From assembly GCA_016709865.1 (NCBI GenBank), contig JADJLX010000002.1, positions 62,001 to 126,000 of the forward strand: a DNA stretch of 64,000 bases, written 5' to 3'. A model generated the notes under the pieces. The model was not told where the DNA came from. It was given only the letters and a program-made list of their open reading frames with translations, and made no database searches. Each line of letters starts with the position of its first letter. The first letter of the stretch is position 1. The stretch comes from Bacteroidales bacterium (GTDB taxonomy: Bacteria > Bacteroidota > Bacteroidia > Bacteroidales > VadinHA17). The position numbers were made by a program, and so were the translations under genes. Below are positions 4,978 through 43,030 of this stretch, piece after piece.

Positions 4978-5268
4978 AACCCGGATGGTAGGCTTAATTG
5001 CCTTCGGCAGGCCGGACAATTCCGTAATCAGCCCCAAAGTCATTTAGAGCATGTTTAAAGCCACTTATTGTACTTTCTGTACCTTGACCACTCCTGCTAC
5101 CGTGATAAGGTCTATGGGCCTGCCGGCTGACGCGCGAGCTGTCAAGTTTTTTGCAGCCACACTATTTAAATCTACCTTGACGTGACAACTCCGTTCCATC
5201 TATCGGGACCTGCAAAAAACTCGCCAGCCCCGACACAGACGGCAACTAATCCTAACCACCGAGCCGTT
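4978..5268 (+). repeat. attC-like block 1 (AAC...GTT, 291 bp)
   Basis: Starts AACCCGGATGGTAGGC and ends CCTAACCACCGAGCCGTT. After AAC/GTT and an unpaired gap, TGGTAGGCTTAATTGCC pairs with GGCAACTAATCCTAACCA. It is preceded by arm GCAGCTAAC, belonging to the TonB unit, and followed by arm GTTAGCATTCAGGCCC, belonging to the next unit. Confidence 0.75.
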
Positions 5269-5350
5269 AGCATTCAGGCCCAAAGTCGCCGTGACAATTT
5301 ACTCATATCGTGACAATTCCGTAACGTAATCAGGGGACCCGAATGCTAAC
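5266..5350. repeat. leader hairpin of unit 1
   Basis: GTTAGCATTCAGGCCC at the left pairs with GGACCCGAATGCTAAC at the right, about 85 bp in all. The same arm closes this unit at 6595 (GGCCCGAAATGCTAAC). Confidence 0.65.
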
Positions 5351-5545
5351 CGAAAAATCAGATTACACTCGGTTTCGGGACTCAAAATGTTTTTTAACTT
5401 TGACTGTCGATAAATCCTATAAACAAGCTATTGGGCATAATTCCAACCAATAAATATCTTTGATCAATGACCCAAACTAATTTCATAATAGTCCAAGATT
5501 GCACACTATTCCAGATCAAAAAAAGCAATCAGACAATGGATCTAT

Positions 5546-6431
5546 ATGTATGATAAATCATTGTCAGAGAATTTTTGTATTGAGTTATATCAGTATGACA
5601 CAAATAAGTATGTCATTATACCCAAAGAAGATATTGATAATCAGTCATTCAATTTTTTGGTTAATTATTTATACTACCCTGAAAACATAAAGTATAAACC
5701 AATAATTAGTGGTTACACTTTTGTGAAAGACACAACGATTTTCCCAAAAGAGAAATTAAACTATGAAATAGAAATTTTTGTTCCCCAAAATGATACAGAG
5801 TACGATAATGTATATGCCGTGACTCAATATAATGAAGTGTTTAAAATTGATTTTGGAGGTAAAACGATTAAATCTTCATTAATCAAAAGTTTTGAAAAAC
5901 CACCATTAGATTTCTCAGTTCTCTCATCACCTCAAATTTTAAAAAAAAGAAGGTTGATCCAAAGAAGGTCGCGCTTAAAGAAAAAGAAAAGATTAAAAGG
6001 CGAACAAGTATTATCTCACTCGTTGTTGTACTCTTGATTTTAATAAGTTATGCATTTATCGGGAATTCAAAGAATTTTAGTTTGATGACAGGATTTATCT
6101 TTTGGGGAATTTGGGGTTGGTTCGTTTTAGATTATAAAATGCTTCAACATCTATCATTTTTCTCATAGCAGTTGCAATTTCAATTTTTCCGATAATATAC
6201 AGCTACATATTATTTCAGAAACTTCTTACGTTTGACTATAGATTTATCAAATCAGCATCATATTTGCCAATTTTCCTTTTAACAATCCAATTTCCTTTAA
6301 GAAGATTATTCATAAAAATACTCAAGAGAGAACCTGTTGTCGATAAACCTGCTCCATCAATGGCAGATTTTATATACACCATTATACTCTGGATGACATC
6401 ATTGATATTGCCATTTATAACACTAATATAG
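5546..6431 (+). pseudogene. membrane protein gene split over three frames
   Basis: The first frame (5546-6037) gives a soluble N-terminal part of about 130 residues (EIFVPQNDTEYDNVYAVTQY). At an A8 run near 5938 the sense moves to a second frame (KKVALKEKEKIKRRTSIISLVVVLL..., a transmembrane segment), which stops at 6166-6168. A third frame continues with two or three more hydrophobic segments and ends at 6431 (DFIYTIILWMTSLILPFITLI). Read together it is a protein of about 290 residues, a soluble or cytoplasmic head followed by three to four membrane segments. The family is not recognised. It is the only gene of unit 1. Two frameshifts may be genuine decay or indel errors. Confidence 0.6.
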
Positions 6432-6594
6432 TTACGCCCCATAACCCTGACAATATGGGTAAGTTGTTCGTTACAGTTTTAGCTTTTTCTCTTCTACTCA
6501 AGACAGATATTTTATGGTTGATACCCCGGACACGCGTATCTGTATACAATTTAATTCATATAAAATGACAGGTTAAAAATTGGCCCGAAATGCT

Positions 6595-6939
6595 AACCCG
6601 GATGGTAGGCTTAATTGCCTTCGGCAGCCCGGACAAATTTTTAATCAACCCAATGTCTATCACCATAAATTTCACCCACTTATAAGTTTTTGGTACCGTG
6701 ACTAATACTGCTACCGTGACAAAGTCTATGGGCTGCCGGCCCTCGCTCCTGTTGTCATGGTTTTTGCATCACCGTCGTGATAATTTTACCATACCATGAC
6801 AAATCCTGCTCACTTATCGGGACACCTTCATCTGGACAACTTTATCGTGACATCCAAATCCTGCCCACTTATCGGGACTGTGCAAAAACTCATGCCAACC
6901 CCGACACAGACGGCAACTAATCCTAACCACCGAGCCGTT
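6595..6939 (+). repeat. attC-like block 2 (345 bp, type I)
   Basis: AACCCGGATGGTAGGC at the left; CTAATCCTAACCACCGAGCCGTT-type end at the right. Inner arms include CATGGTTTTTGCATCACC (about 6757), pairing with GTGCAAAAACTCATGCC (about 6880). Left flank arm AATGCT, right flank arm AGGTTGC: different units on either side. Confidence 0.78.
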
Positions 6940-7143
6940 AGGTTGCATGCTCCAAAATCTATCCACCATGTTTTATATATCTTGATAGTTTCTCCTTTCT
7001 ATTATATCTTGATTCATACTTATCCAAATTTATCGTGACAATTAGATTTCGTCCATTTGCCGGGATTCAGCCGTCTGCCAAATCCTGCTTGACGTGATTG
7101 TCCTGCCCATTTATCGGGATCTGGGGATCGCACGCAACCTAAC
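6937..7143. repeat. leader hairpin of duplicated unit, copy A
   Basis: GTTAGGTTGC at 6937 pairs with GCAACCTAAC ending 7143. The interior carries GTGACAA- and CCGGGATT-type motifs found throughout the array. Confidence 0.6.
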
Positions 7144-7297
7144 GGCACCCTGAAAAATTTTTCAAATTACAATGATTTGTGTAACCGGACAACTCTTAAA
7201 TATCATTATTTCAGATTATTCTGTGAATAAAAATATAAGTATAAGTCCTATCTCAAGCTAATTTTTAAATTATTAACTTTATAATAATTTCCAGACA

Positions 7298-7648
7298 ATG
7301 AAAACATATATTTTAAAATGTAGCTTTCTGTTCATCCTGCTAATTTTGCCAATAATTGGTTGTGTAAAACATATTAATTCAGACTGTTATAAAGGCAAAG
7401 TTGTAAGTCTAAACAATGGGGATGGATGTAATAATATCCTTGAAATTATTGAATGCCCTGAAGCAGGGGGACTATCAATAGGTTCAACAACAACGTTTGA
7501 TCCCACATTAGCTTTTTCAAAGATAAATAAAGGAGATCTTATTTATTTTAAGATAATACAATATAATAAATGGACCGGGCCAGCAAATGCTGCTTGCTTA
7601 TGGCCTGAGTTTACAGCACAAATTGAGTTTTGTGACAATAATAAATAG
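7298..7648 (+). CDS. small cassette lipoprotein, copy A
   Basis: 116 residues, with signal peptide and lipobox LPIIGC (Cys about residue 22). The mature part has several Cys (SDCYKGK, DGCNNILEIIEC, AACLWPEF), suggesting disulfides in the periplasm or at the surface. A pattern GKVVSLN-x(3)-GCNN-x(5)-IECPEAGG is seen, but the family is not recognised. The ATG follows an AT-rich stretch with TTAACTTTAT 25 bp upstream, a possible -7 box. It is the only gene in its unit and is identical to the gene at 18349. Function unknown; location inferred from the lipobox. Confidence 0.8.
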   Translation: MKTYILKCSFLFILLILPIIGCVKHINSDCYKGKVVSLNNGDGCNNILEIIECPEAGGLSIGSTTTFDPTLAFSKINKGDLIYFKIIQYNKWTGPANAACLWPEFTAQIEFCDNNK

Positions 7649-7699
7649 TACAGGACAGACTTATGCCAGCGGGACAGTTTTAATTCTAGCACGTAACCT

Positions 7700-8044
7700 A
7701 ACCCGGATGGTATAGGTAATTGCCTTCGCCAGCCCGGACCAATTCATAATCACCCCAATGTCTATCACCGTAATTTACACCCACTTATCAAGTTTTGTAT
7801 ACCGTGACTAATCCTGCTACCGTGACAAAGCCAATGGGGCTGTCGTCCTTCGCGCAGTTGTCATGGTTTTTGCATCACCATCGTGACAATTTTATCATAC
7901 CGTGACAAACCCTGCTCACTTATCGGGACACACTCATCTGGACCATTTTATCGTGACATCCAAATCCTGCTCATCTATCGGGACTGTGCAAAAACACATG
8001 CCAACCCCGACACAGACGGCAACTCCCCATACCACCGAGCCGTT
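7700..8044 (+). repeat. attC-like block 3 (345 bp, type I)
   Basis: Left AACCCGGATGGTATAGG, right CCATACCACCGAGCCGTT. TGGTATAGGTAATTGCC pairs with GGCAACTCCCCATACCA. Inner stems: GCCAGCCCGG with GGGGCTGTCG, and CATGGTTTTTGCA with TGCAAAAACACATG. Confidence 0.8.
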
Positions 8045-9124: not shown

Positions 9125-9394
9125 AACCCGGATGGTTGGGGTAATAAACTTGTCACATTTTTTGCTCGCCACCGTGACAATTTTATCGTGACACAAAACT
9201 TATCACTCATCTGCCTAGTTCGTTTCTTCCGGCTCTGGACAAATCCGTATACCGTGACAACTTTATCGTTCGCCGGGACTGGCAAAAAATGCGCCATGGT
9301 GGCTTGTCCGCCGGGACTAATCCTGCCTAAAGTACCAGGACACGTAACGGCGGACGGCGCCACCAACGTTTACTACCGCAACCACCGAGCCGTT
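9125..9394 (+). repeat. attC-like block 4 (270 bp, type II)
   Basis: Left AACCCGGATGGTTGGGG then TAATAAACTTG; right CGTTTACTACC then GCAACCACCGAGCCGTT. Inner stems: ATTTTTTGC with GGCAAAAAAT, and GGTGGCTTGTCCGCC with GGCGGACGGCGCCACC. The end stem encloses both, a three-way layout. Confidence 0.8.
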
Positions 9395-9456
9395 ATGCTT
9401 AAGCCTCAGGCCGTTACGGGACAGATTCGTCTTGACTGAAAAGGCCTAAGCATAAC
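9392..9456. repeat. leader hairpin, arm GTTATGCTTAAGCC
   Basis: GTTATGCTTAAGCC pairs with GGCCTAAGCATAAC over 65 bp. The same arm closes this unit at 10416, and a third copy with its downstream sequence (CCTAAGCATAACGGTTTC) lies at 10275-10300, a probable remnant of a lost leader. Confidence 0.65.
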
Positions 9457-10415: not shown

Positions 10416-10760
10416 AACCCGGATGGTATAGGTAATTGCCTTCGCCAGCCCGGACCAATTCGTAATCACCCCAATGTCTATCACCGTAATTTACACCCAC
10501 TTATCAAGTTTTGTAAGCCGTGACTAATCCTTCTACTGTGACAAAGCCAATGGGGCTGTCGGCCTTCGCGCCGTTGTCATGGTTTTTGCATCACCATCGT
10601 GACAATTTTATCATACCGTGACAAACCCTGCTCACTTATCGGGACACACTCATCTGGACCATTTTATCGTGACATCCAAATCCTGCTCACTTATCGGGAC
10701 TGTGCAAAAACACATGCCAACCCCGACACAGACGGCAACTCCCCATACCACCGAGCCGTT
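10416..10760 (+). repeat. attC-like block 5 (345 bp, type I)
   Basis: Left AACCCGGATGGTATAGG, right CCATACCACCGAGCCGTT. Both flanks have the same arm (GGCCTAAGCATAAC / GTTATGCTTAAGCC), so here the outer stem is extended to about 14 more pairs. Confidence 0.8.
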
Positions 10761-11637: not shown

Positions 11638-11982
11638 AACCCGGATGGTATAGGTAATTGCCTTCGCCAGCCCGGACCAATTCGCAATCACTCCAATGTC
11701 TATCACCGTAACTTACACCCACTTATCCAGTTTAGTATACCGTGACTATTCCTGCTACCGTGACAAAGCCAATGGGGCTGTCGGCCGACCCGCCGTTGTC
11801 ATGGTTTTTGCATCACCATCGTGACAATTTTATCATACCGTGACAAACCCTGCTCACTTATCGGGACACACTTATCTGGACCACTTTATCGTGACATCCA
11901 AATCCTGCTCATCTATCGGGACTGTGCAAAAACACATGCCAACCCCGACACAGACGGCAACTCCCCATACCACCGAGCCGTT
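11638..11982 (+). repeat. attC-like block 6 (345 bp, type I)
   Basis: Left AACCCGGATGGTATAGG, right CCATACCACCGAGCCGTT. Left arm AAGCATAAC (previous unit), right arm GTTAGCATT (next unit). Confidence 0.8.
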
Positions 11983-12655: not shown

Positions 12656-12810
12656 ACTATAAAAACCTTTCTCCGGATAAACCAAAACTGCGTAATTGCT
12701 GTTTACAAAATAACACAATCGTGACAAATCCTGCCTGTTTGCCAGGATTTAAAATCGTGACAAATCAGATATCGTGACAAATTCTTTACATCGGGACAGT
12801 TTTAATTCTG

Positions 12811-16610: not shown

Positions 16611-16955
16611 AACCCGGATGGTATAGGTAATTGCCTTCGCCAGCCCGGACCAATTCATAATAAACCCAATGTCTATCACCGTAATTTATACCCACTTATC
16701 AGGTTTTGTATACCGTGACTAATCCTGCTACCGTGACAAAGCCAATGGGGCTGTCGGCCTTCGCGCCGTTGTCATGGTTTTTGCATCACCATCGTGACAA
16801 TTTTATCATACCGTGACAAACCCTGCTCACTTATCGGGACACACTCATCTGGACCATTTTATCGTGACATCCAAATCCTGCTCATCTATCGGGACTGTGC
16901 AAAAACACATGCCAACCCCGACACAGACGGCAACTCCCCATACCACCGAGCCGTT
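16611..16955 (+). repeat. attC-like block 7 (345 bp, type I)
   Basis: Left AACCCGGATGGTATAGG, right CCATACCACCGAGCCGTT, nearly identical to blocks 3, 5, 6 and 9. Left arm AAATGCT, right arm AGGTTTC. Confidence 0.8.
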
Positions 16956-17701: not shown

Positions 17702-17990
17702 AACACGGATGGTAGGCTTAATTGCCTTCGGCAGCCCGGACTAATCCCTAATCACCCCAAAGTCTATGAGCGCATGTTTAAGCACACTAATCAAACTTTT
17801 GGCACCATGACTACTCCTGCTACCATGACAAGGTCAATAGGGCTGCCGGCTGACGCACAAGCTGTCAAGTTTTTTGCAGCTACACTATTAAGATTTACCT
17901 TGACATGACAACTCCGTTCCATCTACCGGGACCAGCAAAAAACTCGCCAGCCCTGACACGGACAGCAACTAATCCTACCACCGGGCCGTT
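17702..17990 (+). repeat. attC-like block 8 (289 bp)
   Basis: Left AACACGGATGGTAGGC, right CTAATCCTACCACCGGGCCGTT-type end. It is related to blocks 1 and 2 but shorter than block 2. It stands before copy B of the duplicated unit, whereas the different block 2 stands before copy A. Confidence 0.75.
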
Positions 17991-18194
17991 AGGTTGCATG
18001 CTCCAAAATCTATCCACCATGTTTTATATATCTTGATAGTTTCTCCTTTCTATTATATCTTGATTCATACTTATCCAAATTTATCGTGACAATTAGATTT
18101 CGTCCATTTGCCGGGATTCAGCCGTCTGCCAAATCCTGCTTGACGTGATTGTCCTGCCCATTTATCGGGATCTGGGGATTGCACGCAACCTAAC
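17988..18194. repeat. leader hairpin of duplicated unit, copy B
   Basis: GTTAGGTTGC pairs with GCAACCTAAC, as in copy A at 6937-7143. Confidence 0.6.
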
Positions 18195-18348
18195 GGCACC
18201 CTGAAAAATTTTTCAAATTACAATGATTTGTGTAACCGGACAACTCTTAAATATCATTATTTCAGATTATTCTGTGAATAAAAATATAAGTATAAGTCCT
18301 ATCTCAAGCTAATTTTTAAATTATTAACTTTATAATAATTTCCAGACA

Positions 18349-18699
18349 ATGAAAACATATATTTTAAAATGTAGCTTTCTGTTCATCCTGCTAATTTTGC
18401 CAATAATTGGTTGTGTAAAACATATTAATTCAGACTGTTATAAAGGCAAAGTTGTAAGTCTAAACAATGGGGATGGATGTAATAATATCCTTGAAATTAT
18501 TGAATGCCCTGAAGCAGGGGGACTATCAATAGGTTCAACAACAACGTTTGATCCCACATTAGCTTTTTCAAAGATAAATAAAGGAGATCTTATTTATTTT
18601 AAGATAATACAATATAATAAATGGACCGGGCCAGCAAATGCTGCTTGCTTATGGCCTGAGTTTACAGCACAAATTGAGTTTTGTGACAATAATAAATAG
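18349..18699 (+). CDS. small cassette lipoprotein, copy B
   Basis: 116 residues, identical in sequence to the product of 7298-7648: signal peptide with lipobox LPIIGC and several Cys in the mature part. The perfect conservation of both gene and upstream region shows recent duplication or conversion. Function not recognised; envelope location inferred. Confidence 0.8.
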   Translation: MKTYILKCSFLFILLILPIIGCVKHINSDCYKGKVVSLNNGDGCNNILEIIECPEAGGLSIGSTTTFDPTLAFSKINKGDLIYFKIIQYNKWTGPANAACLWPEFTAQIEFCDNNK

Positions 18700-18750
18700 T
18701 ACAGGACAGACTTATGCCAGCGGGACAGTTTTAATTCTAGCACGTAACCT

Positions 18751-19095
18751 AACCCGGATGGTATAGGTAATTGCCTTCGCCAGCCCGGACCAATTCGTAA
18801 TCACCCCAAAGTCTATCACCGTAATTTACACCCACTTATCAAGTTTTGTATACCGTGACAAATCCTGCTACCGTGACAAAGCCAATGGGGCTGTCGGCCT
18901 TCGCGCCGTTGTCATAGTTTTTGCATCGCCATCGTGACAATTTTATCATACCGTGACAAACCCTGCTCACTTATCGGGACACACTCATCTGGACCACTTT
19001 ATCGTGACATCCAAATCCTGCTCATCTATCGGGACTGTGCAAAAACACATGCCAACCCCGACACAGACGGCAACTACCTATACCACCGAGCCGTT
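18751..19095 (+). repeat. attC-like block 9 (345 bp, type I)
   Basis: Left AACCCGGATGGTATAGG, right CCTATACCACCGAGCCGTT. TGGTATAGGTAATTGCC pairs with GGCAACTACCTATACCA; this copy has G-to-A changes at the right arm that improve the pairing. Confidence 0.8.
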
Positions 19096-20190: not shown

Positions 20191-20528
20191 AACCCGGACG
20201 GTTGGGGTAATAAACTTGTCACATTTTTTGCCTGGTGACGTGAACGCCAGCCGAGCAAAAACTGCAAGTAATTTAGAGGCCCGAACGCTCTTTTTTCTTT
20301 TGATCATTTTATCTTCATTAAAATTTTCTGCCCTTTACCAATTTCTCATGCCTACGCTCGGTCGGCTGGCTTGTTTTATCTTGACGTGACAGTTTTCACT
20401 CTTCTGCCGGGACGAGCAAAAATTGCGCCATGGTGGCTTGTCCGCCGGGACTAATCCGAACTAAAGTACCGGGACACGTAACGGCGGACGGCGCCACCAA
20501 CGTTTACTACCGCAACCGCCGAGCCGTT
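20191..20528 (+). repeat. attC-like block 10 (338 bp, type II with insert)
   Basis: Type II ends (AACCCGGACGGTTGGGG; CGCAACCGCCGAGCCGTT). An insert in the left half carries GCCAGCCGAGC, which pairs with GCTCGGTCGGCTGGC further on. Parts of this insert recur at 47480-47560 and 48690-48720. Confidence 0.75.
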
Positions 20529-21414: not shown

Positions 21415-21683
21415 AACCCGGACGGTTGGGGTAATAAACTTGTCACAATTTTTGCGCCATACCTTGACAACTTTTTCATGACGATTAATTCTCACTCATT
21501 TTCCAAATCCGTACATTCCGGCTCTGGACAAATCCGTTTACCGTGACAACCTTATCTTTCGCCGGGACTGGCAAAAATTGCGCCATGGTGGCTTGCCCAC
21601 CGGGACTAATCCGACCTAAAGTACCAAGACGCATAACGGCGGACGGCGCCACCAACGTTTACTACCGCAACCGCCGAGCCGTT
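21415..21683 (+). repeat. attC-like block 11 (269 bp, type II)
   Basis: Left AACCCGGACGGTTGGGG, right CGCAACCGCCGAGCCGTT. Here A-to-C in the left arm (GACGG) is matched by A-to-G in the right (CCGCC), a compensated change relative to block 4. Confidence 0.8.
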
Positions 21684-23003: not shown

Positions 23004-23305
23004 AACCCGGATGGTTGGGGTAATAAGCTTGTCACAATTTTTGCATCGCCGCCGTGACAATTTTATCATGACATTTAGTTTTTTAATCATCTGCCAAATC
23101 CGTTCTTTCCGGCTCTGGACAAATCCGTATACCGTGATAACTTTATCGTTCGCCGGGACTGGCAAAAATTGCGCCATGGTGGCTTGCCCGCCGGGAGAGT
23201 TTTGTCACACCCTCCTTCGCGTGAAAAACGCTTCGGAGGGCGAAGCCAGGACACGTAACGGCGGACAGCGCCACCAACGCTTACTACCGCAACCACCGAG
23301 CCGTT
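23004..23305 (+). repeat. attC-like block 12 (302 bp, type II with hairpin insert)
   Basis: Type II ends. Between the GCCGGGA and CCAGGACAC motifs lies a hairpin insert (about 23195-23247) with CCCTCCTTCGCGTG and CGCTTCGGAGGGCG arms. The same insert is in the block at 41092 and in the remnant at about 43870. Confidence 0.78.
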
Positions 23306-23872: not shown

Positions 23873-24952
23873 ATGTTTCAATCTACTACTAACCAGACAA
23901 AATTGAACCGGATAATTCCATTAATATTTCTGATTCTGATAATTCAATCTTGCGAAGAAATTCTGCAAATTAAAATTCCGGATAGTGGTCCGATGATCAC
24001 TGTCAATTGCATATTGAATGAAGGTGAACCAATTCAAATGCGGGTAAGCGAAAGTCAACCATATCCACCAATTACAGATACCGACCTTGTTATTAAGAAT
24101 GCAATTGTAAAACTTTATGAAGATGATGTATACATAGAAGATCTTGTTTATCAGGAAACTTTCAACTTAATGCGTATTCCCCGTGTTACAGCAGCGTACC
24201 ATTCTCTAAATCAATTCCGTCCCAGAACAGATCATTCTTATTCAATCAAAGTCAGTTCACCTGGATTTCCTGATGTTAATTCAAGTACCTATTTGCCAAA
24301 TCCGGTTCCTATAATATCTATTGATACTAGTACTGTATTTACAATGAGCGGCCCATATCAATATAAAACTATTGAATGCAAAATAAAATTCCGTGATCCA
24401 CCAGGAATCAGAAACTATTATAAATTAAGTCTCAGAAGAACCGCATTATACTATCTGTCAGCAGGATCAGTACCCGGATATTCAGGATTATTCACCTTTA
24501 AGCAGGCTATCCCTTTTCTTTGCCATGATCTTAATGCAGTATATTTTAAAAGACCTCCTGAATCTCAGATATTAGTTACTCCGGATATGGAGATGGAAGA
24601 AGCAATGCCTGACAAAATCTATATAGCTGATGATTCTTTTGATGGAAAAATCTACGAATTGATAGTAATGATTCCTGTTTATTTATTAGAAGATATGGCC
24701 TTCCCACAACATGGAGAGAAATTCATATTGAGGAAAATTAATTTTGAATTGTCTTCAATTAACGAGGAATATTACAAATATGCACGTTCAAATTATATTC
24801 AGTTCTATAAGAAAAATGACTTCTTCTCTGAACCTTGTTATGTTTATAATAATATTAACAATGGTACAGGAATCTTTTCAGGCTCTTCAGCAAGTGTTGA
24901 CTCTTCGATTATAGTTCCAATCTACTATTATGTGTGGTTTAATAAAAAATAG
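23873..24952 (+). CDS. DUF4249-family outer-membrane lipoprotein
   Basis: 359 residues. Hydrophobic segment about 14-26 ends in LIIQSC (lipobox). The following EEILQIKIPDSGPMITVNCILNEGEPIQMRVSESQP is the standard DUF4249 opening (ivveG-i-x-n-x-p-x-x-V-x-l-s-x-S), and TDTDLVIKNAIVKLYEDD continues it. The first part is followed by beta-rich sequence up to YYYVWFNKK. The stop is 9 bp before the receptor gene, so they are co-transcribed. Role: accessory to the receptor at the cell surface (known association, function not established). Confidence 0.8.
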   Translation: MFQSTTNQTKLNRIIPLIFLILIIQSCEEILQIKIPDSGPMITVNCILNEGEPIQMRVSESQPYPPITDTDLVIKNAIVKLYEDDVYIEDLVYQETFNLMRIPRVTAAYHSLNQFRPRTDHSYSIKVSSPGFPDVNSSTYLPNPVPIISIDTSTVFTMSGPYQYKTIECKIKFRDPPGIRNYYKLSLRRTALYYLSAGSVPGYSGLFTFKQAIPFLCHDLNAVYFKRPPESQILVTPDMEMEEAMPDKIYIADDSFDGKIYELIVMIPVYLLEDMAFPQHGEKFILRKINFELSSINEEYYKYARSNYIQFYKKNDFFSEPCYVYNNINNGTGIFSGSSASVDSSIIVPIYYYVWFNKK

Positions 24953-24961
24953 GAACTCCAA

Positions 24962-27404: not shown

Positions 27405-27680
27405 CCAAACCGTCCCTACTGCTTTCAGGCACATTACGCAAACATTAAATTCCATCCTACAAATTGAAATATGTCTTTGCGTAAAGAGCCTTCAAGCCCG
27501 TCCCTGCCACTCATCCGATCAGGCGTTAAATCGGGCGTTTAGTTAATATGCCAAGTCTAATTAAACTCTGCCCTGCAGCTAACTGGCTGGTGCGTGCAAT
27601 AAGCTTTTAATCTTGCTTTTATCCCAAATTTGTCATAAAAAAGCTCATTGCATGCACCAGCTAAAAAACCAATACCAGAT
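27405..27680. repeat. TonB-cassette tail repeat, copy 2, including a compact block
   Basis: Parallels 4528-4800: inverted repeat TTACGCAAA/TTTGCGTAA, GTCCCTGCCACTCATCCGA, then CTGCAGCTAACTGG. From AAC at 27581 a compact hairpin follows, CTGGTGCGTGCAATAAGC against GCTCATTGCATGCACCAG. Arms differ from copy 1 but stay complementary, so the pairing is conserved. Confidence 0.72.
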
Positions 27681-27915: not shown

Positions 27916-28185
27916 AACCCGGTCGGTTGGGGTAATAAACTTGTCACAATTTTTGCTCCCTACCGTGACAATTTTATCGTGACACTTAGCTTTTCACTCA
28001 TCTGCCAAATTAGTATTTTCCGGCTCTGGACAAATCCGTTTATTGTGACAACTTTATCGTTCGCCGGGACTGGCAAAAATTGCGCCATGGTGGCTTGTCC
28101 GCCGGGACTAATCCGACCTAAAGTACCGGGACACATAACGGCGGACGGCGCCACCACCGTTTACTACCGCAACCGCCGAGCCGTT
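27916..28185 (+). repeat. attC-like block 13 (270 bp, type II)
   Basis: Left AACCCGGTCGGTTGGGG, right CGCAACCGCCGAGCCGTT. TCGGTT/AACCGCC keeps pairing compared with GATGGTT/AACCACC in block 4. Confidence 0.8.
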
Positions 28186-28544
28186 ATAGTGCATTTTCAG
28201 CCCTTGACAAATCCCAGCTTGACCCGGACAAACGCACTATAACTCCAAACCGCAAATATTCAATAGTTGATGATTTTGCCCTCGCGCACTGTTCTATAAG
28301 TTTCGTCATGACATGATAGTTTCCTCACACTTATCGGGACCTGCCAACGCTCGACAGAAATTTGCCCTCGCACCTTCACATATAAACTCTGTTATTTAAT
28401 TAACAATACTGCTTTCTACCTGGATTCGGCCCTCGCGCGACCGTGACAGGTTTCGGGAGATTGCAAAATTTCGATACCGTGACTAATCCTGTTACCGTGA
28501 CAATTTCATCGCTGGAGGACAATTTTAATTGAACGCACTATAAC
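28183..28544 (+). other. gene-less unit (362 bp)
   Basis: Opening arm GTTATAGTGC at 28183, leader closing ACGCACTATAAC at 28232-28243, closing arm ACGCACTATAAC at 28533-28544. The 300 bp between hold only GTGACAA/TCGGGAC motifs and TTTGCCCTCGCGC repeated three times. No plausible coding frame. Confidence 0.6.
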
Positions 28545-28818
28545 AAGGTCGGTATAGTAAATTGCCGAACGGTAGCCCGGACAAATTATTCTAATGCCCA
28601 AATCCTGCATTGGCTACCGGGAGAAATTTCTGGCTGGCATGGGTTTTTGCTCTTTCCTTTGACAGTTTTTCTATATCATGACCATTTCGCCACGCTACCG
28701 GGACTCAGCCATCTTGACAACTTTATCGCGACGTGAAACATATCGCAATCTATCGGGACTTAGCAAAAACCCATTCCAGTGACAGGGAAGTCGGCAACTT
28801 ACTATACCGCCTGCCGTT
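28542..28818 (+). repeat. attC-like block 14 (277 bp, type III)
   Basis: Left AACAAGGTCGGTATAGTAAA then TTGCCG; right CGGCAACTTACTATACC then GCCTGCCGTT. The inner pairing GGTATAGTAA/TTACTATACC is exact, whereas type I has GGTATAGGTA/TCCCCATACC. Inner arms GGGTTTTTGCT and AGCAAAAACCC. Confidence 0.78.
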
Positions 28819-29023
28819 AGCACAAATAGTCTTCGGTGTTATTGGCCTCCCGCCGCCATCTATTGTGTTTATCATGACAATCATATTTCGTGTCATCTGG
28901 ACTGAAATATCGCCCCGCTTCTGCACCTTGACAACTTCGTCTGAAACGCATATTTCGTATACCTGGAGAATTTTATCCGCCGGCCAATTCGGGACAATTC
29001 CTGCTAAAACTACTTGTGCTAAC
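28816..29023. repeat. leader hairpin, arm GTTAGCACAAATAGT
   Basis: GTTAGCACAAATAGT pairs with ACTACTTGTGCTAAC over 208 bp, near copies at 29770 and 30498. Contains CTCCCGCCGCCATCTATTGT and ATCCGCCGGCCAATTCGGGA. Confidence 0.68.
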
Positions 29024-29504: not shown

Positions 29505-29772
29505 AACAAGGCTGGTGTGGGTAATAAGCTTGTCGCAATTTTTTTCTACCGGGACCATTTTATCGTAAACCAATACTTTCACTAATCTGTTAATTCCTGC
29601 ATGCCGGCTCATGACAAATAAATGTACTATTGACACTTATTCCTTTCGCCGGGACTTTGAAAAAATTGCGCCATACCCGTCTTGCAACCGGGACCATTTT
29701 CTAGCTAAAGTTCCGGGACACGTAACGGTTGCTGCGCCGGGTAACGCTTACTACCTACACCAGCCGGCCGTT
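29505..29772 (+). repeat. attC-like block 15 (268 bp, type IV)
   Basis: Left AACAAGGCTGGTGTGGGTAA then TAAGC; right GCTTACTACC then TACACCAGCCGGCCGTT. GGCTGGTGT pairs with ACACCAGCC: both sides differ from type II (GATGGTTGG/CAACCACC). Confidence 0.8.
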
Positions 29773-29977: not shown

Positions 29978-30233
29978 GTCACAAGCCAGCTATTTTTAAC
30001 TGGACAATTTCGTCCCGCTTTGACAACTGGATCTATGCACTTAAAACAATTTACCAAAATCCTGCTTTCGTGACAACTTCTACTTATCTGCCGGGATCAA
30101 TATATATCATGACCGTTTTTTGTATCAGGACTAATTTGGCCTGTGTTAAAATCATTCCAACTAAGCCTGGATTTTTAGATACCTTGACAGCTTTCTCCTA
30201 CCGTGACAATTTTAATTTGCTACTTGTGCTAAC
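29770..30233 (+). other. gene-less unit (464 bp)
   Basis: Opening arm GTTAGCACAAATAGT, leader to 29977, closing arm GCTACTTGTGCTAAC at 30219-30233. Between 29978 and 30218 I see only array motifs. No likely gene. Confidence 0.58.
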
Positions 30234-30500
30234 CCGGATGGTTGGGGTAATAAGCTTGTCGCAATTTTTTTTTCTACCGGGACCATTTTATCTTAAACCA
30301 ATACTTTCACTCAGCTGTTAATTCCTGCATGCCGGCTCATGCCAAATAAATGTACTCTTGACACTTATTCCTTTCGCCGGGACTTTGAAAAAATTGCGCC
30401 ATACCTGTCTTGCAACCGTGAGAAATTCGTAGCTAAAGTTCCGGGACACGTAACGGTTGCTGCGCCAGGTAACGCTTACTACCGCAACCACCGAGCCGTT
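30231..30500 (+). repeat. attC-like block 16 (270 bp, type II)
   Basis: Left AACCCGGATGGTTGGGG then TAATAAGC; right GCTTACTACC then GCAACCACCGAGCCGTT. AAGC/GCTT replaces AAAC/GTTT of block 4 on both sides. Confidence 0.8.
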
Positions 30501-31874: not shown

Positions 31875-32144
31875 AACAAGGCTGGTGTGGGTAATAAGCT
31901 TGTCACAATTTTTGCTCGCCACCTTGACTGTTTAATCATGACACAAAACTTATCACTAATCTGCCAAATTCGTGACTTCCGGCTCTGGACAAATCCGTTT
32001 ACCGTGACAGTTTTATCTTACGCCGGGATTTGCAAAAATTGCGCCATGGTGGCTTGCCCGCCGGGACAAATCCGACCTAAAGTACCGGGACCCGTGTCGG
32101 CGGACAGCGCCACCAACGCTTACTACCTACACCAGCCGGCCGTT
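31875..32144 (+). repeat. attC-like block 17 (270 bp, type IV/II hybrid)
   Basis: Ends of type IV (AACAAGGCTGGTGTGGG; CCTACACCAGCCGGCCGTT) with a type II interior (GGTGGCTTGCCCGCC / GGCGGACAGCGCCACC). Exchange between block families is visible. Confidence 0.8.
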
Positions 32145-33529: not shown

Positions 33530-33795
33530 AACAACGCTGGTATAGGCAATAAGCTTGTCACAATTTTTGCTCGCCACCTTGACAGTTTTATCATGACGGT
33601 TAACTTCTCACTCATCTACCAATCTTTTTCCGGCTCTGGACAAATCCTGCTTCCGGGACAATTATATCTTTCGCCGGGACTGGCAAAAATTGCGCCATGG
33701 TGGCTTGCCCGCCGGGACTAATCCTGCCTAAAGTACCAGGACACGTAACGGCGGACGGCGCCACCAACGCTTACTGCCCATACCAGCGGGCCGTT
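33530..33795 (+). repeat. attC-like block 18 (266 bp, type V)
   Basis: Left AACAACGCTGGTATAGGCAA then TAAGC; right GCTTACTGCCCATACC then AGCGGGCCGTT. CGCTGGTATAGGCA pairs with TGCCCATACCAGCG; both arms differ from types II and IV in step. Confidence 0.8.
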
Positions 33796-35123: not shown

Positions 35124-35393
35124 AACCCGGATGGTTGAGGTAATAAGCTTGTCACAATTTTTGCTCTCAACCGTGACAATTTTATCTTGACACTTAACTT
35201 ATCAATCATCTGCCAAATCCGTTTTTTCCGGCTCTGGACAAATCCAGAATCAGTGACAACATTATCATTCGCCGGGACTGGCAAAAATTGCGCCATGGTG
35301 GCTTGCCCGCCGGGACTAATCCGACCTAAAGTACCTGGACACGTAACGGCGGACGGCGCCACCAACGCTTACTACCGCAACCACCGAGCCGTT
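35124..35393 (+). repeat. attC-like block 19 (270 bp, type II)
   Basis: Left AACCCGGATGGTTGAGG then TAATAAGC, right GCTTACTACC then GCAACCACCGAGCCGTT. Left arm AAACAT, right arm AGCATT. Confidence 0.8.
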
Positions 35394-37236: not shown

Positions 37237-37243
37237 TGCTATG

Positions 37244-38623
37244 AAAAGCAATCGCCTCGGGTTAAGCAAATTTAAATAATATTCTTCACTTATAAACTTC
37301 TTAAAAAATCCTATAAAATCACACTGCTATCTGTGGTCAGTAAGATATGCCTGCCGCAATCACTTGTCATTTTTTATAGTAAGGGTACGTATGCTAAGGG
37401 TTGTAATCGCAATGTTACCTGCCGTGTTTTACGTTATCCCTCATTTCTTTTGACCTTATAGGTTTTGTTTTTCTATGCCACTCCTGTTATGTATGGCTTC
37501 CTGTTTTTCATTACATATCTGATTCTGTTTAATAGTTTACGTGCCACTTTGATCACAACTTTATGTCCTTTGTTATTTACCAGATGGGAATGATAGTACT
37601 GCATCATTGCAGGATCCATCCTTATTGCCTGCCATGAGGATTCAATGAGAAGGGTTCTGAGAAACGAATTACAACGAAAGGTTATTCCACCGGTATAAGT
37701 GGTTTCTCCGCTCTCCCTTATCCTGGGAATGAGACCAACATAGCTGCCTAACTGATCAATGTTCGTAAAACGATTAATATCCCCAAGTTCTGTAATTAAT
37801 GCTGATGCAGTTAGCGGACCTATTCCTGATACTGATTTTAATAATGTATAAAGCTCTCTGTCATATTCCCGGATCCTTTCCCTTATCTGACGACTTAGTG
37901 TCAGCAACAGGTTCCTGTGATACTCGTATGAACTAATCAGATTGGATAGTGCATCCTGACCGCTTTGTGTCTGCATCTTTACCTGTTTTAACCACGATAC
38001 AAACTTTAATGTCCATTGGTTATTGTCAAATTCCACAGGGATCGGTTCTCCGTAGTACTGAAGAAAGCTTTTTATCCTGGTCTTGCTTCGTCGAAGATCA
38101 CGCATCAGGTAAAACCGTGTCCTGTTTAAGCTACGGAGTTCTTCCAGTTCACGATCAAAAATATGAATCCCCCGAAGTGACCCTTTTTCAAGTGACCGGG
38201 CGATTTTACGGCTGTCAACCGGGTCACGCTTTTGAAGCTTATCTTTCTGGGAGGTAGGAATATCGGCAGCATTGATTACAATATTGTTTATCCCAAGTTG
38301 ATTTAGCCTTCGATGAATTGCATAACCACAGAATCCGGCCTCATAAGCAGAATTATACTCTCCTCCGGGAAACATTCGATGAAGATAACTATTGAGAGAT
38401 TCCGGGTCGGGAGGTTGAGTGAAGGTACGGTGTTCAGTACCATCAACAAGGATCGTTACACTCCAGCTCTTCTTATGAACATCTAATCCAATGAATAGCT
38501 GTTTACCTGTGAAATCGATTTTTTTCGTAACTTGTGTTTGCATAGTCTCTAAGTTTAAGTCATTTACGAACTTTAATTTATGAAATTATTGTATCGTACC
38601 GGAGACTATGCTTTTATCATAAG
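37244..38623 (-). mobile_element. IS110-family insertion sequence (about 1.38 kb)
   Basis: Boundaries were set by where the interrupted block resumes; TGCTATG occurs on both sides (37237-37243, 38624-38630). It contains one transposase gene on the minus strand, about 230 bp of noncoding DNA downstream of it and 80 bp upstream. No long terminal inverted repeats, as usual for IS110. CATAGTCTC (38540) and GAGACTATG (38602) form a hairpin at the upstream end. The noncoding ends may encode a bridge RNA; I cannot define it. Confidence 0.75.
37473..38543 (-). CDS. IS110-family transposase
   Basis: 356 residues, full length. The N-terminal DEDD domain starts FIGLDVHKKSWSV (first Asp) and continues with YEAGFCG (Glu) and KRDPVDSRKIA (Asp pair). 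The C-terminal transposase_20 domain has LLKSVSGIGPLTASALITELGDINRF, SYVGLIP, GGITFRCNSFLRTLLIESSW, with the serine expected for catalysis. Acts on structured DNA targets, in the IS110/IS1111 family guided by a bridge RNA. No frameshift, so the element may be active. A 5' tip of a related gene is left at 14803. Confidence 0.95.
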   Translation of the reverse strand: MQTQVTKKIDFTGKQLFIGLDVHKKSWSVTILVDGTEHRTFTQPPDPESLNSYLHRMFPGGEYNSAYEAGFCGYAIHRRLNQLGINNIVINAADIPTSQKDKLQKRDPVDSRKIARSLEKGSLRGIHIFDRELEELRSLNRTRFYLMRDLRRSKTRIKSFLQYYGEPIPVEFDNNQWTLKFVSWLKQVKMQTQSGQDALSNLISSYEYHRNLLLTLSRQIRERIREYDRELYTLLKSVSGIGPLTASALITELGDINRFTNIDQLGSYVGLIPRIRESGETTYTGGITFRCNSFLRTLLIESSWQAIRMDPAMMQYYHSHLVNNKGHKVVIKVARKLLNRIRYVMKNRKPYITGVA

Positions 38624-38995
38624 TGCTATGGGTAATTTGTTTGTCACGGTTTTTGATTTTGCTCCTGCACTCAAGACAAATTTGTAATGGCCGTTGCACC
38701 CGGATACGCGCATCTGCTCACAATTAAAATCTTGCACCTTGACTAATTTCTGCCTTTGAGACAACTTTGTACCGCGATACTTCGCCAGTTCCCATTTATA
38801 AAATTCCTGCACCGGGAGCAATTCCCGGCCACTTAGCAACCTTGTACCGCGATCGCGCCTTAACGCAAAAACATTTTACTTTCAAGACACAAAATAATGA
38901 TCCTAAATAAAATTGGACTACAAAAAGATCTAGACAGCTTTTTATATCTGGAGAAATTACTCTTCAGTGACAGTTTTAATTCCTTGCCTAAATAT

Positions 38996-39251
38996 AACCC
39001 GGATGGTATAGGTAATTGGCTGCGCCGAGCTCGGACCGAGATAGTATTTACCTGCTTTGCAATTGAGATTTCAGTCGGTCCTCGGTTGCCTTCAGCAGCC
39101 CGGACTACTTCGTAATCACCCCAATGTCTATCATCGCAATTTACACCCACTTATCAAGTCTTGTATATCGTGACTAATCCTTCTACCGTGACAATTTACA
39201 TATAGTGTGACAATTACATAACCTTTGACAGATCGCACAAATACTAACGAA
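38996..39251 (+). repeat. fused block and leader remnant
   Basis: Starts AACCCGGATGGTATAGG like type I, has an insert with GCCGAGCTCGGACCGA and TCGGTCCTCGG arms, continues as type I to about 39195, then jumps into a leader end (GACAATTACATAACCTTTGACA ... CACAAATACTAAC). The right half and the GTT are missing. Confidence 0.55.
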
Positions 39252-39822: not shown

Positions 39823-39854
39823 TTTACGAAACAACAATAAAACCAACCAATAGC

Positions 39855-40205
39855 ATGGAGCCAATCCCAGTATTTTTTGACAATGTAAATAGAACTGCGC
39901 TTGTCATAAAACCCAATAAACCATTTTTCGATTGGCTTAATAGTATTGAGAGTCTGTCAGATGATCCTGATATTTACAATGATACCGATATCTATCTTTT
40001 GCCTGCCTTCGATGACACAGATCAAATGGAGAAGTGGATTACGAAAAACTTCGATATAATCTTTTGTGACCAAATGAATCATTGGTATACTGACGAATCA
40101 CTTTGGGTCCAAAAAAGGACATTTAAATTATTTACCCAATGGTTTGATTATTCAGTTCATACCATGATTTGGGATACTTTAGATAAGCCTATTTCAAAAA
40201 TGTAA
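39855..40205 (+). CDS. conserved hypothetical protein (116 aa), VF530-like pattern absent
   Basis: 116 residues, acidic, soluble. It begins MEPIPVFFDNVNRTALVIKPNKPFFDWLNSI and has a DIYLLPAFDDTDQMEKWITKNFDIIFCDQMNHWYTDESLWVQKRTFKLFTQWFDYSVHTMIWDTLDKPI core, rich in Trp and Phe. I know this layout from small conserved proteins of Bacteroidota and Proteobacteria but no function. It follows the cupin gene closely and probably shares its transcript. Confidence 0.78.
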   Translation: MEPIPVFFDNVNRTALVIKPNKPFFDWLNSIESLSDDPDIYNDTDIYLLPAFDDTDQMEKWITKNFDIIFCDQMNHWYTDESLWVQKRTFKLFTQWFDYSVHTMIWDTLDKPISKM

Positions 40206-40380
40206 ATTTCTAAATAACAAACAGGATAATTTCAGATTTCCCAGACATCTGTTAACAAAATAACACACCAAGACAAATCCTGCATTTGATTCAGGACCTG
40301 CACCCCTGACAAATTTCATTTATAGTGACAGATTCTTTGCATCATGACAGTTTGAAATAAGCACAAATGCTAACAACGAT

Positions 40381-41082: not shown

Positions 41083-41091
41083 CGAAACGCT

Positions 41092-41392
41092 AACAACGCT
41101 GGTATAGGCAATAAACTATTTACATTTTTTGCTCGCCACCGTGACAATTTTATCCTGCCACAAAACTTTTAACTTATCTGCCAAATCCATGTTTTCCGGC
41201 TCTGGACAAATCCGTAATGCAGGGACAAATTATCTTTCGCCGGGACTGGCAAAAATTGCGCCATGGTGGCTTGCCCGCCGGGAGAGTTTTGTCACACCCT
41301 CTTTCGCGTGAAAAACGCTTCAGAGGGCGAAGCCAGGACACGTAACGGCGGACGGCGCCACCAACGCTTACTCCCTCAACAGCCGGGCCCTT
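41092..41392 (+). repeat. attC-like block 21 (301 bp, type V/II hybrid with insert)
   Basis: Left AACAACGCTGGTATAGGCAA; right end ACTCCCTCAACAGCCGGGCCCTT, where the final GTT is changed to CTT and the arm no longer pairs well with the left. Contains the same hairpin insert as block 12. Probably inactive. Confidence 0.7.
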
Positions 41393-41449
41393 ATGCTTAA
41401 GCGATTCGTGCCGAGACAGTTAGTCTATTAAAAAACGCCTAAACATAAC
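41390..41449. repeat. leader hairpin, arm TTATGCTTAAGCG
   Basis: TTATGCTTAAGCG pairs with CGCCTAAACATAA (one mismatch). The unit closes with CGCCTAAGCATAAC at 42740. Confidence 0.58.
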
Positions 41450-41541
41450 GGTAAAATCGATGATTAATGCAAAATGGGACAATTTTATTTCTAACTTGAC
41501 GACAAATCCATACTTCAAGATTAATCATTTAAAGACAAAAA

Positions 41542-42735
41542 ATGAAAATCTCAATCGTTATTAACGGAACAAGAGGAGATGTGCAACCAATGCTTGTTCT
41601 AGCAATTGGACTCAAGAAAAATGGACATGAAGTAATTCTCTTTGCCCCACCTGAGAATGAAGAAATCGCAAATAAATATAATTGTCCTTTTGTTGCATTT
41701 GGTCCGAACTACAAAGAAAAGTTCAAACAAAATGCACAAATGAAAGGTGGGGCAACTTCAGCGCCTTCCCCAAAAGAGATGAAAACGGAGACTGATAACC
41801 AGATTAAAAAGCTCCCGAAAATGGTTCAAGGTTCTGATTTAGTACTGGGTGTGGGGTTTGTTTTAGGTGTTCATACCGTTGCAGACCTCTTAAAGATCCC
41901 ATATCGTTTCGTTATTTTCTACCCAATGCTTTTGGGAACGAGTAAAAAAGATCCCTTTTTCAATCGACTACTTTTCGGACTTGGCAGATCGATGACTAAT
42001 CTGGTTATGAAAAGTTTCATCAATAAAAGTCGAAATGACATGGGACTACCTCCAATAAAAGACGTTTGGGAACACTGGATGGGGGAACATGTCATTGCTG
42101 CATGTGACAAAGAGTTAAATACTGTTCGAGATGGGGTTTCATTTAATTTTACTCAAACAGGATATATGTTGTTCATAGCACAAGATGGATTACCTGAATA
42201 TGTGGACAATTTCCTTAAATCAGGGAAACCTCCGATTTATATTGGATTTGGTAGTAATCCAGTAGATCGACCTGAAAAGTACAATCTTATTTTTAACCAA
42301 GTCTCGAAAGAGACAAATCAAAGATTAATAGTTTCAAAAGGATGGGCAAATCTGCAAGAGAATAACTCAACTGATATTCTTTATGTCGATGAAATTCCTT
42401 TTGAATTACTATTTCCACGACTTGCAGCAATAGTATATCATGGAGGTACAGGGACTATGGCAGCAGCAGCAAGAGCTGCTATCCCACAAGCAGTTTTCCC
42501 ATTTATGGCTGACCAATTTGAAAACAGAAAACAGATTATAAAACTTGGACTTGGACCTAAGACTTGCGATTTTAAAAAGTTGACTGCAAATGCAATTTCT
42601 TCAGCTATTAAAAATTGTGTAAATAATAGTGAGTTTAAAAAAAGGGCAGGTGAAATCTCCGAAAAATTAAAAATGACAGATGGACTTGACTTGACAATTA
42701 AACTGCTTGAGAGAGAATTTAAAAATAACGCCTAA
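41542..42735 (+). CDS. GT1-family glycosyltransferase (UDP-glucuronosyl/sterol-glucosyl type)
   Basis: 397 residues, cytoplasmic, GT-B fold. The N-terminal acceptor domain opens MKISIVINGTRGDVQPMLVLAIGLKKNGHEV, the standard start of this group. The C-terminal nucleotide-sugar domain has YIGFGSNPVDRP, LYVDEIPFELLFPRLAAIVYHGGTGTMAAAARAAIPQAVFPFMADQFENR, with the conserved HGGTGT and the D/Q pair. Transfers a sugar from UDP- or dTDP-sugar to a lipid, sterol, or small molecule such as an antibiotic. A full-length enzyme in a one-gene unit; arms at both ends match. Confidence 0.9.
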   Translation: MKISIVINGTRGDVQPMLVLAIGLKKNGHEVILFAPPENEEIANKYNCPFVAFGPNYKEKFKQNAQMKGGATSAPSPKEMKTETDNQIKKLPKMVQGSDLVLGVGFVLGVHTVADLLKIPYRFVIFYPMLLGTSKKDPFFNRLLFGLGRSMTNLVMKSFINKSRNDMGLPPIKDVWEHWMGEHVIAACDKELNTVRDGVSFNFTQTGYMLFIAQDGLPEYVDNFLKSGKPPIYIGFGSNPVDRPEKYNLIFNQVSKETNQRLIVSKGWANLQENNSTDILYVDEIPFELLFPRLAAIVYHGGTGTMAAAARAAIPQAVFPFMADQFENRKQIIKLGLGPKTCDFKKLTANAISSAIKNCVNNSEFKKRAGEISEKLKMTDGLDLTIKLLEREFKNNA

Positions 42736-42739
42736 GCAT

Positions 42740-43030
42740 AACACGGATGGTATAGGTAATTGCCTTCGCCAGCCCGGACCAATTCGTAATCAGCCCAATG
42801 TCTATCACCTTAATTTGCACCCTCTTATTTAACTTTTTGTACCGTGACAAATCCTGCTACCGAGACAAAGCCAATGGGGCTGTCGGCCATCGCGCTGTTG
42901 TCATGGTTTTTGCATCACCGTCGTGACAATTTTATCAAACCGTGACAAATCCTGCTCACTTATCGGGACTCACTCATCTGGACAACTTTATCGTGACATC
43001 CAAATCCTGCTCATCTATCGGGATTTAGAA
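42740..43030 (+). repeat. truncated block 22 (type I, right end lost)
   Basis: AACACGGATGGTATAGG then the type I body to TCATCTATCGGGATT at about 43022; the right arm and GTT are missing. It runs into AACTCCGGCGCCTAAC, which also occurs at 48760. Confidence 0.68.

What the first reader, a model, noticed from the sequence alone, without database searches (positions are those of the whole stretch)
4978..42742. Integron-like array built from cassettes with very long, branched attC-like sites
Seen: some 20 blocks of the form AAC...GTT separate plus-strand genes. Six blocks are exactly 345 bp and eight are 266-270 bp. Each has AAC/GTT ends, a short unpaired gap, then a long inner stem, i.e. the R box, spacer and L box order of attC. 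Known: integron attC sites (RYYYAAC...GTTRRRY) are usually about 55-150 bp single hairpins in arrays with mostly one gene per cassette. Here the sites are longer and fold into two enclosed branches. No integrase is in the window. Inference: a CALIN-like array or a distinct cassette system in Bacteroidota.
Basis: partly seen in the sequence, partly recalled or inferred. Interest (0 to 1): 0.95.

Follow-up and report, generated by a model that had tools for sequence, protein, structure and literature searches.

The report
Second kind of gene-shuffling integron
This DNA is a row of about twenty small gene units separated by unusually long, hairpin-forming sites, and its relatives suggest that the units are likely loaded and reshuffled by an enzyme lacking the helix held to be essential in integrons, which would give bacteria a second way to collect genes.

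Summary
In detail: 20 AAC...GTT blocks of 266-345 bp (six of exactly 345, eight of 266-270) separate cassettes, and the array runs on past 42.7 kb. The decisive integron test is met: each cassette's start (GTTx) is complementary to the R'' box (x'AAC) at its own end, not to the other side of the same block (17 of 20 consecutive pairs score 8+/10; 0 of 100,000 permutations). The bottom strand folds better at 84 of 84 sites. A whole cassette occurs twice in the window (1094 of 1105 identical), identity ending at GTTA; another is shared by two genomes with different neighbours. No integrase was found in the window. In 8 of 16 related genomes the sites follow, on the same strand, a tyrosine recombinase (fragmentary in two) that lacks the ~40-residue IntI-specific insert and carries new N-terminal domains; canonical IntI is over cut-off in 0 of 16. 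An attI-like first junction lies just 3' of the recombinase at 9 of 28 loci. The same family stands beside arrays with shorter sites elsewhere, sharing a G.T wobble in the R box. Best reading: an integron lineage with an insert-less integrase; new variant of a known kind. Catalysis is inferred, not shown.

The parts
4978..5268 (+). attC-like site 1 (291 bp), first full site of the array
6595..6939 (+). attC-like site 2 (345 bp)
6937..8041 (+). cassette 2 (1105 bp), duplicated at 17988-19092: 1094 of 1105 identical; identity ends at GTTA
7700..8044 (+). attC-like site 3 (345 bp)
9125..9394 (+). attC-like site 4 (270 bp)
10416..10760 (+). attC-like site 5 (345 bp)
11638..11982 (+). attC-like site 6 (345 bp)
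16611..16955 (+). attC-like site 7 (345 bp)
17702..17990 (+). attC-like site 8 (289 bp)
17988..19092 (+). second copy of cassette 2
18751..19095 (+). attC-like site 9 (345 bp)
20191..20528 (+). attC-like site 10 (338 bp)
21415..21683 (+). attC-like site 11 (269 bp)
23004..23305 (+). attC-like site 12 (302 bp)
27916..28185 (+). attC-like site 13 (270 bp)
28542..28818 (+). attC-like site 14 (277 bp)
29505..29772 (+). attC-like site 15 (268 bp)
30231..30500 (+). attC-like site 16 (270 bp)
31875..32144 (+). attC-like site 17 (270 bp)
33530..33795 (+). attC-like site 18 (266 bp)
35124..35393 (+). attC-like site 19 (270 bp)
41092..41392 (+). attC-like site 20 (301 bp; ends in CTT, not GTT)
45634..45739 (+). 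short attC-like site (106 bp) beyond the stated range; folds no better than shuffles
48772..48823 (+). very short attC-like site (52 bp), matched by both end profiles, the 3' one only weakly (E 0.44)
38996..39052 (+). start of a further site whose 3' end was not recognised
42740..42797 (+). start of a further long site without a recognised GTT end
47449..47510 (+). start of a further site without a recognised GTT end
50200..50257 (+). start of a further site without a recognised GTT end
4703..4790 (+). degenerate short stem with an AAC start and no GTT end
   Evidence: seen in the sequence; weak start-profile match (12.5 bits)
27581..27665 (+). degenerate short stem with a perfect R'' for the cassette that starts at 23303, and no GTT end

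Best explanation
The window holds an integron-like array of gene cassettes whose attC-like sites are 266-345 bp long, and these cassettes are likely captured, excised and reordered by a tyrosine recombinase of a Bacteroidales family that lacks the integron-specific I2 insert. Shown from sequence: cassettes start with GTTx and end with x'AAC plus a site, x and x' being complementary over about 10 nt; cassettes have moved with breakpoints at GTT; in relatives the recombinase lies upstream on the same strand, with an attI-like junction 73-407 bp past the end of the recombinase match at 9 of 28 loci; its catalytic residues are intact; the insert is absent. Inferred: the bottom strand folds into a branched hairpin with an extrahelical T; the recombinase cuts at G|TT on that strand; circular cassettes insert at attI and leave by attC x attC exchange, the junction being resolved by replication as in integrons. 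Predicted only: one or two N-terminal domains, resembling in fold the SMARCAL1 HARP and archaeal XPB N-terminal domains, recognise the folded site in place of the I2 helix.
For: Cassette signature: 17 of 20 consecutive R'->R'' pairs score 8+/10 in the window, own-site pairs 3 of 21, 0 of 100,000 permutations; 16 of 21 in G012, 0 of 100,000. Bottom strand more stable at 84 of 84 sites against 14 of 40 and 16 of 40 control windows. L stem: 613 of 714 cells paired, largest of 500 shuffles 541; an extrahelical base in 73 of 83 sites, 67 of them A on the top strand, T on the bottom. Movement: a duplicated cassette in the window (1094/1105) and one shared by G012 and G006 (598/665) with different neighbours; identity ends at GTT. 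Recombinase (fragments in G008 and G004) then sites, same contig and strand, in 8 of 16 genomes; canonical IntI over cut-off in 0 of 16. attI-like first junction at 9 of 28 recombinase loci against 7 of 1550 shuffles; in G012 and G015 it leads to window-type sites. Insert absent: PDB 2A3V residues 182-249 unaligned; GLR-to-HxLRH 91-93 residues in the 27 of 31 family members where both motifs were found, 133 in 6 of 10 canonical IntI, 96 in 3 of 5 Xer. R-box position 11 is A/C (G.T on the bottom strand) in 73 of 78 pairs of this family's arrays, at most 1 of 28 at canonical IntI arrays.
Against: No recombination was observed. The window has no recognised recombinase, and its own genome is not held. 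One of 16 genomes (G001) shows only Xer-like hits; in G008 and G004 the recombinase is in fragments; G011 has the recombinase but none of the 3' site motif, and its locus L017 looks like a chance hit. G002 and G014 have the recombinase but no long site within 5.2 and 2.7 kb downstream; in G015 only the start of one site is on the contig. The cassette signature is weak in the short L052 array (1 of 6 pairs at 8+, 1390 of 100,000 permutations). In the family of G012, 12 of the 18 genomes with a close recombinase have fewer than 3 site motifs, and 7 of the 13 genomes with 3 or more lack a match at E<=1e-120. 19 of 28 recombinase loci show no perfect attI-like junction. Wobbles in the L stem are not significantly strand-biased (25 bottom, 15 top, p 0.15). 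The domain resemblance is weak.
Confidence: 0.82

Rival explanations
1. A CALIN: a cluster of attC sites mobilised by a canonical IntI encoded elsewhere in the genome or lost; the neighbouring insert-less recombinase is a bystander.
For: Canonical IntI is common in the phylum: 105 of 395 genomes over cut-off, with arrays of about 80-185 bp sites beside some. The window itself has no recognised recombinase.
Against: 0 of 16 genomes (15 of them with the 3' site motif) have a match over the TIGR02249 cut-off. The insert-less recombinase precedes the sites on the same strand in 8 of 16, with an attI-like junction at 9 of 28 recombinase loci. Arrays of this family carry the position-11 A/C mismatch, canonical arrays in the same phylum do not, and the four clearest canonical arrays lie on the 5' side of intI, not the 3' side.
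Confidence: 0.1
2. Dispersed hairpin repeats (REP- or MITE-like) inserted between genes, with no cassette recombination.
For: The blocks are similar repeats between genes, and intergenic DNA here is full of short shared words.
Against: Insertion of a repeat cannot make the left flank of block i+1 complementary to the right flank of block i across a gene. The duplicated unit is gene plus block, bounded by GTT.
Confidence: 0.03
3. The recombinase works on double-stranded core sites like Xer/dif or phage integrases, and the long foldable site is only a regulatory or replication structure.
For: The family's best NCBIfam match is XerA-like, and Xer enzymes lack the I2 insert. GTTRN6A/CN6YAAC is a longer sequence-defined core than the classical 7-bp R box.
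Against: Paired L stems, a conserved extrahelical base and 84 of 84 bottom-strand bias fit folded-strand recognition. In the array the two R arms of one site come from different cassettes and mostly do not match (own-site mean 4.5 of 10).
Confidence: 0.12

Closest known systems
Integrons (IntI, attI, attC), e.g. the Vibrio superintegron with VCR sites
   Same: Cassettes of gene plus hairpin site; R'/R'' complementarity within a cassette; bottom-strand bias; extrahelical base; attI-like first junction; cassette movement with a break at G|TT.
   Different: Sites of 266-345 bp in the window against 57-142 nt stated in PMC2727003 (passages); R box extended to about 11 bp with a G.T wobble at position 11; recombinase without the IntI-specific insert and with new N-terminal domains; array on the 3' side of the recombinase gene, same strand.
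Canonical integrons of Bacteroidota (found here at L108, L109, L111, L113)
   Same: Cassette signature and AAC...GTT sites.
   Different: IntI with the insert (133 against 91-93 residues between motifs where measured); sites of about 80-185 bp, one of 252 bp; Watson-Crick at R-box position 11 in 22 of 28 pairs; array on the 5' side of intI.
XerA/XerC-like tyrosine recombinases (PDB 4a8e, 5hxy; NF040815)
   Same: Core-binding and catalytic domains without the IntI insert; best solved relatives by sequence and fold.
   Different: Extra N-terminal domains; the tree sets the family together with IntI, apart from chromosomal Xer of the same genomes (100/99 support); stands beside cassette arrays.
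Integron-like subgroup of tyrosine recombinases in PMC8138268 (passages)
   Different: The passages read do not link insert-less members to cassette arrays.

Membership tests
Integron | Cassettes in which the R' start is complementary to the R'' of the same cassette | tested here: met
   window 17 of 20 consecutive pairs, G012 16 of 21, 0 of 100,000 permutations each; L052 1 of 6, weak
Integron | attC with R-L-L-R boxes folding on the bottom strand, with extrahelical base and unpaired spacer | tested here: met
   (predicted folds and pair counts; no probing)
Integron | attC length in the known range (57-142 nt, PMC2727003) | tested here: not met
   266-345 bp for all 20 main sites of the window; 52 and 106 bp for two outlying ones
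Integron | Integrase gene with adjacent attI | tested here: inconclusive
   Not found in the window; recombinase (fragments in two) before the sites in 8 of 16 relatives and attI-like junction at 9 of 28 recombinase loci; attI function untested
Integron | Integrase carries the IntI-specific additional domain (I2) | tested here: not met
   Relatives' recombinases; 0 of 16 genomes over the TIGR02249 cut-off
Integron | Cassettes gained, lost or moved with breakpoints at G|TT | tested here: met
   one duplicated cassette in the window, one shared between G012 and G006 with different neighbours
Integron | Recombination catalysed by the integrase | not testable with these tools
   needs an assay
CALIN (attC cluster lacking an integrase) | No integrase linked to the array | tested here: inconclusive
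   None found in the window (50 of 89 ORFs scanned); the left side of the array may lie outside it; own genome not held
Xer recombinase | Groups with chromosomal XerC/XerD | tested here: not met
   5 chromosomal Xer rows form their own clade (100/99) apart from the family and IntI; the program warns of long branches there
HARP/XPB-N-like domain | Sequence or fold match above threshold | tested here: inconclusive

The most novel reading that the evidence does not exclude
A second integron lineage, widespread in Bacteroidales, recombines folded single-stranded attC sites without the I2 helix, using N-terminal HARP/XPB-like structure-reading domains instead; canonical IntI arose inside or beside this lineage by gaining I2. 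Tools that require the IntI insert and short attC sites have missed it.
Probability: 0.45. Interest if true: 0.95.

Novelty: new variant of a known kind. Interest (0 to 1): 0.86.

Why it matters
The I2 insert is described as the innovation that let integron integrases use single-stranded sites (PMC7790495, passages), and a widely used finder looks for integrases by that insert (PMC9668308, passages). Cassette arrays run by insert-less relatives would show another route to the same chemistry, give living candidates for the pre-I2 state, and reveal a large unseen pool of mobile genes: 5918 proteins match one member at E<=1e-40, only 8000 candidates having been scored.

Tried and rejected
MITE/REP repeats: rejected by flank complementarity across genes. 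Canonical IntI: 0 of 16 over cut-off. Known RNA families: none at gathering score in the window. Viral contigs: no exact motif match. Plasmids: the DUF4249 protein at 1049-2281 gave one 26% match, uninformative. A covariance model was not built: a 345-column model is beyond the sizes the tool's description gives times for. Self-BLAST missed arrays at some recombinase loci (L078, L080, L081, L085, L086) that the junction test later found. Strand bias of wobbles in the L stem: not significant. A first tally of distances to contig ends left out four plus-strand hits and was redone. No HARP- or XPB-like assignment is claimed beyond a lead.

Rows dropped before counts: one search left out L007, L018, L020 and L028-L047 as duplicates of longer stretches; one search left out 1 of 84 sites (ends not AAC/TT), counted the stem only for the 73 sites in the bulge register (51 distinct end pairs), and left 10 sites of other registers out; one search left two short proteins (G250, G287a) out of the tree; one search left three loci with under 800 bases downstream out of its 28.

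Literature: nine answered searches of the held library, one of them on HARP domains. The listings show no report of cassette arrays run by insert-less integrases; most subscription papers and preprints are not held. Eight papers were looked at by passages only; none was read whole.
Full report
Observation. The window carries 20 blocks that begin with AAC and end with GTT (one with CTT) between 4978 and 41392; six are 345 bp, eight 266-270 bp, the rest 277-338 bp. Further start motifs and two short sites suggest that the array runs on to about 48.8-50.2 kb. The genes between blocks are mostly small plus-strand ORFs; 50 of 89 ORFs of 80 aa or more were scanned with Pfam and none is a tyrosine recombinase.

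Cassette signature. In an integron the first bases of a cassette (TTRRRY) and the R'' box of that cassette's own attC are complementary, because they were one inverted repeat in the circular form (recalled from the integron literature). Here the 10 nt beside GTT after block i were compared with the 10 nt beside AAC before block k for all pairs. Consecutive blocks match at 8 or 9 of 10 in 17 of 20 pairs, the two sides of one block in 3 of 21, and none of 100,000 permutations of site order reaches the observed sum. The G012 array gives 16 of 21, also 0 of 100,000; the seven-site L052 array is weak (1 of 6; 1390 of 100,000). Counting only perfect pairs with the A/C signature, the window has 28 against 0-2 in each of 10 shuffles within 200-base blocks.

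R box. The one constant mismatch is at position 11: A in R', C in R'', i.e. an A.C mismatch on the top strand and a G.T wobble on the bottom strand. After orientation (A/C 40 in plus-strand arrays, G/T 33 in the four minus-strand ones) it is present in 73 of 78 pairs from 11 loci; 16 loci of this family were examined and five gave no chained pairs. At canonical IntI arrays of the same phylum it is present in at most 1 of 28 pairs from 6 of 9 loci examined, 22 of 28 being Watson-Crick. Pairs within an array are not independent.

Folding. With DNA parameters the bottom strand is more stable than the top at 84 of 84 sites from 24 oriented records; random windows of the same two arrays give 14 of 40 and 16 of 40. 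Energies lie below dinucleotide shuffles at z < -2 for 16 of 21 window sites; the 106-bp site does not. Of 83 sites, 73 fit a register with one extrahelical base, A on the top strand and so T on the bottom in 67; in the 51 distinct end pairs of that register 613 of 714 outer L-stem cells are paired (largest of 500 shuffles 541), several positions with more than one Watson-Crick type. Wobbles in this stem are not significantly biased to one strand.

Movement. Cassette 6937-8041 recurs at 17988-19092 (1094 of 1105 identical) while the preceding block bodies (232 of 346 columns) and the following 300 bp (179 of 346 columns) differ; full identity begins at the first GTT region and ends at GTTA. 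A cassette of about 660 bp is shared by G012 and G006 (598 of 665) between different neighbours; another alignment joins G012 and G002 (566 of 686; its junctions were not drawn).

Relatives. The motif TAACNCGGATGGTNNNGGTAAT is absent from viral contigs and hits 27 loci of the species-genome collection. At 23 of these the site profiles match beyond the motif; 21 of the 23 are titled Bacteroidales, Bacteroidia or Bacteroidetes, the other two Clostridiales and Thermodesulfobacteriales; L011, L012, L017 and L021 look like chance hits. In the 16 genomes taken further, the 3' motif ACCRCCGRGCCGTTR is found in 15 (not G011), up to 43 times; the reversed control in none. In 295 genomes of the order it is found in 10: the carriers G012 and G007, and eight with one or two matches, the level of the reversed control, which is found in 10.

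Recombinase. None of the 16 genomes passes the TIGR02249 cut-off for integron integrase. A family of tyrosine recombinases with open frames of about 370-560 aa is present instead: full-length at 836 bits or more in 8 genomes, at 259-507 bits in 6, as two pieces in G008, and only Xer-like in G001. In G012, G006, G003, G007, G010, G008, G004 and G015 long sites follow it on the same contig and strand; in G008 and G004 it is fragmentary there, and in G015 only the start of one site is on the contig. The catalytic R, K, H-x-x-R, H and Y columns are invariant in 10 of 10 (roles recalled). The IntI-specific insert is absent: residues 182-249 of IntI4 (2A3V) have no counterpart, and the GLR-to-HxLRH spacing is 91-93 residues in the 27 of 31 members where both motifs were found, 133 in 6 of 10 canonical IntI, 96 in 3 of 5 Xer. 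In the tree (44 rows), 10 canonical IntI form one clade (100/100) and the family lies with IntI, apart from 5 chromosomal Xer (100/99); order within is unresolved, and the program warns of long branches.

attI. At 9 of 28 recombinase loci with enough downstream DNA a GTTRN6A lies 73-407 bp after the recombinase match with a perfect partner CN6YAAC further on; shuffles give 7 of 1550. In G012 and G015 the partner starts a window-type long attC. The L073 case lies at the end of an upstream site-like repeat rather than at a clean attI. Among hits of 243 bits or more listed, contigs tend to end just downstream: median 994 bases left below 61 minus-strand genes (28 under 600) against 42,205 above 50 plus-strand genes (4 under 600), as expected if a repetitive array begins there. 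For 16 plus-strand genes with known contig length the downstream room ranges from 70 bases to 4.3 Mb, ten of them under 15 kb.

Breadth. A looser search finds the family at E<=1e-50 in 127 of 295 genomes of the order, five candidates at most being scored per genome. Beside some members stand arrays of other site types: about 80-370 bp at L073, about 120-160 bp at L091, and about 120 bp at L074 and L083. Others, such as L076, L079, L082 and L090, show no chain above the shuffle level or no junction (L076 has one pair more than its shuffles). In the family of G012 the close recombinase (E<=1e-120) is found in 18 of 117 genomes and three or more site motifs in 13; both in 6. Some carriers have more distant or broken members, so the overlap is partial.

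Reading. The array works like an integron; it is not filed as a canonical integron because the insert and the attC length are not met. PMC8138268 (passages) had noted that the insert is not fully conserved among integron-like recombinases. [quoted passage not shown] What remains to be shown is recombination itself.

Noticed in passing
window, first 58-208 bp of most cassettes, e.g. 9392-9456, 28816-29023: After the cassette start GTTx a second copy of x'AAC follows 58-208 bp on: best match 9+/11 in 17 of 21 window cassettes, 33 of 82 over all, 0 of 84 shuffled controls. It could form a hairpin competing with attC; function unexplained.
   Followed up: partly
Bacteroidota genomes, e.g. L108, L109, L111, L113: Canonical IntI (TIGR02249 over cut-off) occurs in 105 of 395 genomes of the phylum, with clear cassette arrays of about 80-185 bp sites (one of 252 bp) beside four of the ten loci looked at closely.
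   Followed up: partly
window 4703-4790 and 27581-27665: Short stems with an R''-like AAC start and no GTT end follow the two DUF4249-containing gene groups (1049-4458; 23873-27313); possibly decayed sites.
   Followed up: no
window 37473-38543 (-): IS110-family transposase inside the array. IS1111-attC elements that target attC are recalled from the literature; whether this one sits in a site was not tested.
   Followed up: no
window 43135-43734: HigB-like toxin and HTH antitoxin pair within the outer array, common cargo of chromosomal integrons (recalled).
   Followed up: no
window intergenic DNA, e.g. 12720-12800, 38620-38860: Intergenic DNA and site interiors share short words such as CGTGACAAATCCTGC and TCGGGACAG in irregular arrays; origin unknown.
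   Followed up: no
L120-L121 (G012 contig C33): A second contig of the same genome carries at least 12 further 3' site motifs, so its array or arrays exceed the 22 sites analysed.
   Followed up: partly
L009 and L019: Window-type sites in MAG contigs labelled Clostridiales and Thermodesulfobacteriales: misbinning or transfer.
   Followed up: no
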